64,000 nt of DNA from Lentzea waywayandensis (GTDB lineage Bacteria; Actinomycetota; Actinomycetes; Mycobacteriales; Pseudonocardiaceae). The DNA lies in assembly GCF_900115955.1 (NCBI RefSeq), contig NZ_FOYL01000020.1, positions 17,726-81,725 on the forward strand, given 5' to 3'. Below, piece by piece: positions 10,785 to 63,228 of this stretch; position 1 is the first letter of the stretch, and the number at the start of each line of letters is the position of its first letter. The notes under the pieces were generated by a model. It made no database searches. It was given only the letters and a program-made list of their open reading frames with translations, and had not been told where the DNA came from. Position numbers and translations under genes: made by a program.

Positions 10785-10843
10785 CCTATGGAGTGGGACG
10801 AGTTCCTGGTGCATGAGCTAGGTTGGTAGCCTTTAAAGTGAAA

Positions 10844-10914
10844 CCGAGAAGCGCTGCAACGGGCCGTGCGCCTGCCACGCTCGGCTTCGTTCCACCACGA
10901 ACAAGGGCGCTTCC
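10844..10914 (+). ncRNA. S-adenosylhomocysteine (SAH) riboswitch upstream of metH
   Basis: The sequence matches the SAH riboswitch plan. P1 pairs CCGAG (10844-10848) with CTCGG (10880-10884), enclosing the conserved AGCGCTGCAACGG and GCCACG segments. P4 is GTTC/GAAC at 10889-10892 and 10899-10902. The pseudoknot pairs AGCGCT (10850-10855) with GGCGCT (10906-10911). The aptamer ends about 20 nt before the metH GTG start. A TAGGTT -10-like element at 10819-10824 would start transcription just upstream. SAH riboswitches normally raise expression of SAH-recycling genes (ahcY, metH, metF) when SAH accumulates. Confidence 0.85.
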
Positions 10915-10933
10915 GGACTTTTCGGGAGCGCGC

Positions 10934-62058: not shown

Positions 62059-62143
62059 CGGTCCAACATGGCACTGGATCACGACGGCCACAAGCTCTCA
62101 GCACCCTCTCAGTGCACGGCTGCGAGGCTGGCGCGCGAAGGGG

Positions 62144-62496
62144 GTTGATCAAACGGCACGAGCACCCGCAGCCGGAGTGCTCGAACGTATGTGCTATCGT
62201 TTGGACCGAAGGAAACCGGTGGCAGCGAGAACCAAGCAGTTCACCGGAGACCTGCTTACCGGCATCAGCCGGGTGGCGGCGAGTTGCGTCGTGACGGCCC
62301 GATGGAAACCTATGTAAGACCAGCATTCGCTGGCGGCGGGTACTGCCACGGGAAGACCCAGGCTTGTCAGCTGGGCCAACGCCGCGCCGTAAGGCGACGG
62401 CTGCTTGAAAGCACGGACGCAAGTCTGTCGACTTCCAAGTAACGGTTGATCAACTATGCAGCGGTTGATCGCGGTGCTTCCAGCCGCTTCGGATCA
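62144..62496 (+). ncRNA. Candidate structured RNA / SOS-linked small locus (unrecognised)
   Basis: No family recognised. TCGAAC-GTAT-GTGCTA at 62181-62196 resembles the actinobacterial LexA box (10 of 12 positions), followed by a TATCGT -10-like element (62195-62200). Downstream are compact hairpins: CCAGC/GCTGG, CCCAG/CTGGG enclosed by GCGGCG/CGCCGC (62333-62338 with 62380-62385), CGCC-GTAA-GGCG with a GNRA loop (62385-62396), TGCT/AGCA with a TGAA loop, and AAGTC/GACTT. A perfect terminator stem follows. GTTGATCAA flanks the block at 62144-62152 and 62445-62453. It lacks the codon bias of neighbouring genes. Alternatives are a mobile-element scar or a leader of the broken hydrolase gene. 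Confidence 0.35.
62219..62317 (+). CDS. Possible 32-aa small protein with strong ribosome site
   Basis: GTG start 5 nt after GAAGGA (62208-62213), running 32 codons to TAA. The peptide begins MAARTKQFTGDLL and ends TARWKPM, with a mixed hydrophobic/basic middle and one Cys. The start is 20-40 nt after the SOS-box-like promoter, so it would be the first product of that transcript. It has no relative that I recognise. It could be a small SOS-induced peptide, a leader peptide, or a chance frame inside a structured RNA. Confidence 0.3.
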   Translation: MAARTKQFTGDLLTGISRVAASCVVTARWKPM

Positions 62497-62526
62497 GGAA
62501 CGGGCCGCGGTTCAGCGGCCCGTTCC
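62497..62526 (+). terminator. Perfect 12-bp GC-rich hairpin
   Basis: GGAACGGGCCGC (62497-62508) and GCGGCCCGTTCC (62515-62526) are exactly complementary around the loop GGTTCA. No T-run follows, as is common in actinobacteria. It would end a rightward transcript from the structured block and coincides with the point where hydrolase homology begins. Confidence 0.65.
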
Positions 62527-63228
62527 AGTCGGCCATCAGCGCACGATCACACGCACGAGACGGTGGCCGTGGAGTTCCCCGGCGACCGCATCGAGTGGGG
62601 CCTGATGCAGGACGCCTCCCAGGCGACGATGAAGAAGGCCATCGACGCGCGCGTCGCCGACATGCGGTTCGTGCTGGACAAGCGTCCGAGCTTGCACAAG
62701 GACGCGGACACCACCCGCGTCGGTGTCGCCGGGCATTCGTACGGCGGCTACACGGCGGCCGAGACGATGGCGAACGACCGCAGGTTCGACGCGGGCATCA
62801 ACATCGACGGCGCGATGGAGCACACCGGCGAGGACGGCCCCTACGCGCCGGGCAGGGCGGTCACCCAGGGGCTGGACCGGCCGTTCCTGCTGTTCGGCGG
62901 TGACCTGGGCGAGCGCGAACTGAGCCACGTCGACACGAGCCTGACCAGGACGTGGGCCGACTTCTGGCCGAACCAGCGCGGCTGGAAGCGGGACGTGCAC
63001 CTGGACGACGGCGCGCACCTCGGGTTCAGCGACATGCAGTGGTCGGTGCCGCAGATCGCCGCTGTGCCAAGGGAACGCCGGGAGAGTCTCATTGGGACGA
63101 TCGACCCCGCGGACGCGTTGAGGGCCCAGCACGACTACGTGGCGGCGTTCTTCGACCTGCACCTGAAGCACCGGGGCACCAGGCTGTTCGAACGGGCACG
63201 CCACGAAGGGATCCGTCTGGTGCCCTGA
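62527..63228 (+). pseudogene. 5'-truncated alpha/beta hydrolase (PAF-acetylhydrolase-like)
   Basis: The frame to the stop at 63228 encodes the C-terminal ~230 residues of a secreted alpha/beta hydrolase. Recognisable sequence begins at HDHTHETVAVEFPGDRIEWG (62542), which in related proteins follows a strand deep inside the domain. The nucleophile elbow VGVAGHSYGGYTA is intact, as are INIDGAM and DDGAHLGFSDM (probable catalytic His). The signal peptide, first strands and oxyanion region, about 150-200 residues, are missing. The preceding in-frame codons cross the terminator hairpin and do not look like protein. It is therefore most likely a remnant created by deletion or insertion at about 62530. 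Confidence 0.75.

What the first reader, a model, noticed from the sequence alone, without database searches (positions are those of the whole stretch)
62144..62526. Unrecognised SOS-linked structured RNA or small-protein locus
A LexA-box-like promoter, hairpins with GNRA-type loops over about 180 nt, and a perfect 12-bp terminator lie in a stretch that is not a conventional gene. The block is bordered by GTTGATCAA copies. It fits none of the riboswitch, tmRNA, RNase P, SRP or T-box patterns I can recall. It may be a new noncoding RNA, possibly DNA-damage induced.
Basis: partly seen in the sequence, partly recalled or inferred. Interest (0 to 1): 0.7.

Follow-up and report, generated by a model that had tools for sequence, protein, structure and literature searches.

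The report
Guide-RNA-only jumping element
The block is a 300-base relative of bacterial jumping genes that has lost its protein gene but kept the whole guide RNA by which a DNA-cutting protein (TnpB) recognises the element's empty insertion site, which suggests a mobile element made almost only of RNA that depends on a nuclease encoded elsewhere in the genome.

Summary
Window 62145-62445 is a tnpB-less IS200/IS605-type element: left-end hairpin, LexA-like promoter site, leader, and a complete TnpB guide-RNA scaffold (omegaRNA/reRNA) ending at AACGG. Homologous scaffolds follow tnpB genes in the same genome and its relatives, and the structure covaries. Ten of ten syntenic relatives examined lack the element and have a G-run joined to the sequence that follows it in the window, so the predicted guide (62446 onward) reads the empty site. 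Of 77 scaffold copies examined, 28 lack tnpB upstream. The LexA-like box has 2 mismatches and recurs in 3 of 14 copies with this leader; a perfect GAAC-N4-GTTC lies before the tnpB of the genome's only other such scaffold. The "terminator" is outside the element, has no T-run, and half of it is hydrolase sequence. Best reading: a non-autonomous element supplying its own guide to a TnpB made elsewhere; a new variant of a known kind. Transcription, SOS control and use in trans are inferred, not shown.

The parts
62140..62144 (+). G-run (GGGGG) left of the element: insertion target and presumed TAM of the TnpB complex
   Evidence: Present at the empty site of 10 of 10 relatives examined; 15 of 15 other copies with a recognisable left end have GG there, 14 of 15 GGG. 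TAM function inferred.
62145..62152 (+). TTGATCAA: first 8 nt after the G-run, repeated at 62446-62453; either the left-end tip or a duplication
   Evidence: the left end does not fit the TTnnn..RCTG left ends of the copies
62159..62183 (+). Left-end hairpin CGAGCAC / GTGCTCG
   Evidence: folded as DNA, z -4.4, 0 of 200 shuffles as good
62181..62196 (+). LexA-like box TCGAACGTATGTGCTA, presumed promoter site
   Evidence: same sequence at the same place in L031 and nearly so in L101. LexA binding and promoter activity not tested
62208..62277 (+). Leader with a GNRA-type hairpin, shared by 14 tnpB-less copies from four genus handles
62278..62445 (+). omegaRNA/reRNA scaffold, ending at the right end ..AAGTAACGG
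62446..62465 (+). Predicted guide (about 16-20 nt), identical in position to the 3' side of the empty site
   Evidence: guide length taken from ISDra2 (PMC8612924, passages)
62456..63228 (+). Remnant of the alpha/beta hydrolase gene (PAF-AH-like) before whose start the element sits; not part of the element
   Evidence: N-terminal part diverged, about 345 bp missing
62497..62526 (+).
   Evidence: no T-run, right arm is hydrolase sequence, left arm not in relatives

Best explanation
It is a miniature, non-autonomous derivative of an IS200/IS605-family (tnpB-type) element in an actinobacterium of the genus group that holds Lentzea: tnpB is gone, but a left-end hairpin, a promoter-like site and the entire guide-RNA scaffold up to the right end remain. 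SHOWN: homology to tnpB-linked scaffolds, covariation, absence of tnpB, insertion after a G-run just before a hydrolase start codon, and a guide position that reads the empty-site sequence. INFERRED: the RNA is transcribed from the LexA-like site, runs into the flank to give about 16-20 nt of guide, and is bound in trans by the TnpB encoded at G000:C25; the complex cuts alleles that lost or never had the element, so that repair from an occupied copy restores or spreads it. INFERRED, weaker: tnpB and this RNA are both raised by the SOS response, when single-stranded DNA favours movement of such elements. My odds: identity about 0.95; working trans guide RNA about 0.6; SOS control about 0.45.
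For: Own-genome homologue 80% identical, E 3.3e-19, beside a tnpB frame with PF01385, PF07282 and PF12323. Matches in 14 of 24 genus genomes. 49 of 77 scaffold copies examined have tnpB upstream. Scaffold conserved up to AACGG in 26 of 27 aligned copies. 49-pair structure: 93.5% paired, 19 pairs changed on both sides, 0 of 500 shuffles on four measures. Empty sites in 10 of 10 relatives examined. 28 of 77 copies without tnpB, several in near-identical sets. LexA-type cores before tnpB in 5 of 41 against 5 of 14,046 random stretches.
Against: No transcript is known. The window's left end does not fit the family's left-end consensus, and TTGATCAA is repeated at both junctions. The right-end hairpin folded alone as DNA is no better than shuffles (z 0.0), though it covaries in the family. 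The window scaffold scores 142.7 bits, fourth lowest of 30, and its leader GNRA hairpin is damaged. Eleven of 14 copies with this leader lack the LexA-like box. Nothing shows that the C25 TnpB accepts this RNA or that any transposase moves the element.
Confidence: 0.7

Rival explanations
1. An inert relic: a deletion derivative of a tnpB element that inserted before the hydrolase gene, is no longer transcribed or bound, and decays with its neighbour.
For: Damaged leader hairpin, low score within the family, aberrant left end, truncated and diverged hydrolase, a single standalone copy in this genome.
Against: Most scaffold helices are intact; the LexA-like box, leader and scaffold are shared with L031 and L101; standalone copies occur in four genus handles and in near-identical sets in G286.
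Confidence: 0.3
2. A domesticated guide RNA with a host regulatory role, like the guides used by nuclease-dead TnpB relatives (TldR).
For: Orthologous standalone scaffolds with conserved 3' flank exist in five genomes of genus handle g38.
Against: The window copy is absent at the same site in 10 of 10 relatives examined, so it is a recent insertion whose guide reads its own site.
Confidence: 0.05
3. An SOS-induced small RNA or small-protein gene unrelated to mobile elements.
For: LexA-like site and structured region; ORFs of 46-147 aa overlap.
Against: Homology to tnpB-linked scaffolds, a right-end boundary and empty sites; no meaningful Pfam match in four ORFs; covarying structure.
Confidence: 0.02

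Closest known systems
TnpB reRNA/omegaRNA of ISDra2 and other IS200/IS605 elements (PMC8612924, passages read)
   Same: Scaffold from the right end of the element, guide from the flank beyond it, target motif equal to the insertion motif.
   Different: Here no tnpB is attached, a promoter-like site and a leader stand before the scaffold, and the motif is a G-run, not TTGAT.
PATEs of haloarchaea, gene-less IS605 derivatives (PMC3119063, passages read)
   Same: Gene-less derivative of an IS605-type element, explained by core deletion, no inverted terminal repeats of the usual kind.
   Different: The window element keeps a whole guide-RNA scaffold; the passages I read on PATEs say nothing of guide RNA.
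Standalone omegaRNAs of IscB elements (recalled, Altae-Tran and others 2021; not read here)
   Same: Guide RNA without an adjacent nuclease gene, presumed to act in trans.
   Different: TnpB family rather than IscB, with LexA-like site and element ends defined.
TnpB gene drive in plasmids (PMC11870625, passages read)
   Same: Cutting of element-free copies favours element-bearing ones.
   Different: There tnpB is carried by the element; here the nuclease would come from another locus.
Irradiation-stimulated ISDra2 transposition (PMC2806898, passages read)
   Same: Link between DNA damage and IS200/IS605 movement.
   Different: There the effect is put down to single-stranded DNA, with no induced transposase expression seen; here LexA-like boxes before tnpB and the guide RNA suggest transcriptional control.

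Membership tests
TnpB guide RNA (omegaRNA/reRNA) | Sequence and structure homology to the RNA at the 3' end of tnpB | tested here: met
   (the R1 match of the window is by construction)
TnpB guide RNA (omegaRNA/reRNA) | Scaffold ends at the right end and the guide is the flanking host sequence next to the target motif | tested here: met
TnpB guide RNA (omegaRNA/reRNA) | RNA is made and bound by TnpB | not testable with these tools
   No expression or binding data
IS200/IS605 element | Insertion 3' of a fixed short motif | tested here: met
   G-run
IS200/IS605 element | No target-site duplication | tested here: inconclusive
   TTGATCAA stands at both junctions in the window
IS200/IS605 element | Subterminal hairpins at both ends | tested here: inconclusive
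   Left hairpin z -4.4, right hairpin z 0.0 as DNA; right hairpin covaries in the family
IS200/IS605 element | Left-end sequence shared with autonomous copies | tested here: not met
   Window left end differs from those; L101 fits
IS200/IS605 element (autonomous) | Encodes TnpA and/or TnpB | tested here: not met
   No tnpB homology beside the window copy; overlapping ORFs without Pfam match
PATE-like gene-less IS605 derivative | Gene-less, ends related to those of IS605-type elements | tested here: inconclusive
   Right end met, left end not
PATE-like gene-less IS605 derivative | Amplified in the genome | tested here: not met
   One standalone copy in this genome; amplified sets exist in G286
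LexA regulon | LexA box at the promoter | tested here: inconclusive
   2 mismatches to the palindrome; shared by 3 of 14 leader-bearing copies
LexA regulon | LexA binding and damage induction | not testable with these tools
   No binding or expression data
Rfam families, tRNA, tmRNA | Match to a covariance model or ARAGORN | tested here: not met
   relatives L037 and L101 likewise show only chance-level matches

The most novel reading that the evidence does not exclude
An RNA-only selfish element: about 300 bp consisting of ends plus a DNA-damage-controlled guide-RNA gene, which borrows both transposase and TnpB nuclease in trans and uses the nuclease to home back into, or spread to, empty alleles. 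Such elements form recurrent families in this actinobacterial family, and some became fixed host RNA genes.
Probability: 0.3. Interest if true: 0.75.

Novelty: new variant of a known kind. Interest (0 to 1): 0.52.

Why it matters
It would show that a TnpB guide RNA, without the nuclease gene, can be the cargo of a mobile element, and would make the use of guides in trans directly testable in a genome with one other scaffold of the family. LexA-like boxes before both a nuclease gene and an orphan guide would give the known link between DNA damage and this transposon family a transcriptional side. The scaffold family is not in the Rfam copy searched, yet had matches in 57 of 297 genomes of the family searched.

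Tried and rejected
Rfam at gathering and relaxed thresholds: nothing but chance-level matches in these stretches. Plasmid and phage collections by distant blastn: no match. Small-protein reading: no Pfam support. GTTGATCAA as the target motif: rejected, since relatives and other copies show a G-run. The 12-bp hairpin as terminator of the RNA: rejected (outside the element, no T-run, left arm not in relatives).

I first read 62463-62547 as unrelated filler starting 17 nt into the guide and noted it as a possible nuclease scar (note). One search corrected this: 62463-62532 aligns with the hydrolase start (37-44 of 72 columns identical in ten relatives) above 1000 shuffles in each of the four relatives tested, so no scar is claimed. 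A genus search with 62460-62560 found no clear source elsewhere (best E 3.9e-4).

Off-site targets of the conserved flank in five genomes of handle g38: among the places listed no second one with at most one mismatch (the list was cut). Paper searches: no listing showed a paper on tnpB-less guide-RNA elements or on LexA control of tnpB, but I saw listings only, apart from passages of four papers, the library lacks most subscription papers, and the Greek-letter form of omegaRNA could not be searched.

Scope limits: the 12 family genomes were chosen because they had given strong hits, so 28 of 77 is no population rate. 77 of 86 model hits were examined (29 of 30 in the genus, 48 of 56 in the 12 family genomes). 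By my reading six of the 28 (L032, L103, L105, L116, L189, L199) are decayed or partial; L102 and L178 have a tnpB-like match 1.4-2.7 kb downstream, not upstream. Of 11 relatives with strong hydrolase matches I fetched ten; G002 was not fetched. The left ends were picked by eye: 16 copies tried, 15 found, and L035 and L114 appear to be the same insertion.

Full report
What is there. GTTGATCAA occurs in the window only at 62144 and 62445 (three matches with its palindromic overlap). A LexA-like site with two mismatches lies at 62181-62196. The RNA 62195-62445 folds better than shuffles (z -2.3). The 12-bp hairpin is real but begins 51 nt beyond the element defined below and has no T-run. Four ORFs across the block have no meaningful Pfam match; Rfam and ARAGORN find nothing there.

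Homologues. BLASTN of 62140-62540 found one more copy in the same genome, G000:C25:49569-49684, 80% identical, E 3.3e-19, and matches in 14 of 24 genomes of the genus, own genome included. Upstream of many copies the sequence codes for the C-terminus of TnpB (CD.CG..DRDLNAARNL); by tblastn 49 of 77 copies examined have tnpB upstream. The own-genome copy has an open tnpB frame with OrfB_IS605, HTH and Cas12f1-like TNB domains; its catalytic residues were not tested. After orientation, 27 copies (window included) align from about 62278, and 26 of them run to AACGG (L022 does not). Beyond AACGG most differ, though a few share a flank, probably as the same or a duplicated site (for example L006 with L029, L024 with L027). 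This is the layout of a TnpB guide RNA: scaffold in the 3' end of tnpB and the right end, guide in the flank (PMC8612924, passages read).

Structure. In alignment A1 (25 of the 27; L022 and L027 left out as divergent or truncated) a 49-pair structure that I wrote has 93.5% of cells paired and 19 pairs changed on both sides; no shuffle in 500 reached this on four measures and one did on the fifth, and slid versions fall to 30-42% paired. RNAalifold agrees with many of these helices but pairs columns 108-111 with 139-142 instead of the hairpins I used there. A covariance model finds 30 places in the 24 genus genomes, including the window at 142.7 bits, which is by construction.

No tnpB, and the empty site shows the insertion. 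tblastn with the own-genome TnpB finds no homology in the 7 kb around the window copy. In the ten relatives fetched, of 11 with strong matches, the sugar-binding-protein gene on the left and the hydrolase on the right are adjacent and the element is missing. Nine of them read G-run|TAGATCA and L259 has the same run followed by AGATCAAC, one base shorter; then comes the hydrolase start. The window reads GGGGG, the element, then TTGATCAACTATGCAGC, 16 of 17 bases as in L254. So the element sits after a G-run, probably the ribosome-binding run of the hydrolase, and its predicted guide is the 3' side of the empty site. Among other copies with a recognisable left end, 15 of 15 have GG and 14 of 15 GGG at that position, and 15 of 15 end in AACGG; a sixteenth tried, L039, had no such left end.

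Standalone copies recur. Of 86 model hits (30 in the genus, 56 in 12 family genomes chosen for strong hits) I examined 77, and 28 have no tnpB homology upstream. They include copies with the window's kind of leader (14 rows in A2, from genus handles g1, g25, g27 and g38), a four-copy near-identical set in G286 (L181-L184) and a set in g38 (L196, L197, L202, L203); six look decayed or partial. The leader has a conserved GNRA hairpin GGYGARARCC and two further helices with compensatory changes. There three measures exceed every shuffle, one exceeds 477 of 500, and 'further pair types' does not stand out (495 of 500 as high); two of the 18 pairs I wrote never pair because I misplaced one helix by a column or more. 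The hairpin resembles the GTGAAAGCCAAG codons of the TnpB zinc finger, and L105 joins a perfect LexA palindrome to such codons and a scaffold, which suggests origin by internal deletion of tnpB.

SOS control. TCGAACNNNNGTTCGA with up to one mismatch occurs 112 times in the genome against 21 for the reversed pattern, and one perfect box lies at the start of a frame that reads like DNA polymerase IV (motif recalled), so LexA boxes are meaningful here. TCGAAC(G/A)T(A/G)TGTGCTA stands 80-85 nt before the scaffold in the window, L031 and L101; the other 11 leader-bearing copies lack it. Of 41 tnpB genes whose start could be placed, 5 have a perfect GAAC-N4-GTTC within 70 nt upstream, including the own-genome one, against 5 of 14,046 random stretches; 9 of 41 have at most one mismatch against 447 of 14,046. 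The five come from three genomes, so they are not independent. I hold SOS control at about even odds.

Mechanism. By the published model TnpB with its guide cuts the empty donor site and repair from an occupied copy restores the element (PMC8612924, passages; plasmid gene drive, PMC11870625, passages). For the window element the nuclease must come in trans. The genome has 11 OrfB_IS605 matches but only one other scaffold of this family, so the C25 TnpB is the one candidate supported by RNA similarity. One Y1 transposase match exists (C24:327520) and would have to mobilise the ends in trans; that it fits these ends is not tested. ISDra2 movement rises with irradiation, put down to single-stranded DNA and without evidence of induced transposase expression (PMC2806898, passages); LexA-like boxes on tnpB and on the orphan guide would be an added layer.

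Against. The window's left end does not fit the left ends, and TTGATCAA stands at both junctions where relatives have one copy of TAGATCAA or a close variant: a duplication, a conversion between junctions, or chance. The right-end hairpin alone is no better than shuffles. The scaffold score is among the lowest in its family and the leader hairpin is damaged, so a relic is a serious rival. No transcript has been seen.

Novelty. Transposase-free IS605 derivatives are known as PATEs (PMC3119063, passages), TnpB guide RNAs are well known, and standalone omegaRNAs are recalled for IscB. My paper searches listed no report of tnpB-less elements carrying a complete TnpB guide RNA behind their own promoter-like site, or of LexA boxes before tnpB, within an incomplete library. 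I call it a new variant of a known kind.

Noticed in passing
L264-L268 (G152, G192, G167, G060, G202): A tnpB-less scaffold stands at the same place in five genomes of genus handle g38, about 150 bp before a frame that I read by eye as rpmB (ribosomal protein L28), with a nearly unchanged 3' flank (guide position). It looks like a vertically kept, perhaps domesticated, guide RNA; no clear second target among the places listed.
   Followed up: partly
window 62145-62152 and 62446-62453: TTGATCAA follows the G-run on the left and AACGG on the right, while relatives carry one TAGATCAA or a close variant; both window copies share the T. Duplication or conversion at the junctions is unexplained.
   Followed up: partly
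window 62456-63228: Hydrolase gene behind the element is truncated by about 345 bp and its first 75 bp have diverged to 51-61% identity, although the rest is 82-89% identical to relatives.
   Followed up: partly
L181-L184 (G286): A second, near-identical multi-copy set of tnpB-less scaffold elements with its own leader.
   Followed up: partly
L105 (G145:C66): Apparent deletion intermediate: perfect LexA palindrome, remnant of TnpB zinc-finger codons, then the scaffold.
   Followed up: no
window 10840-10919 +: SAH riboswitch match just above its gathering score (37.6 against 37 bits).
   Followed up: no
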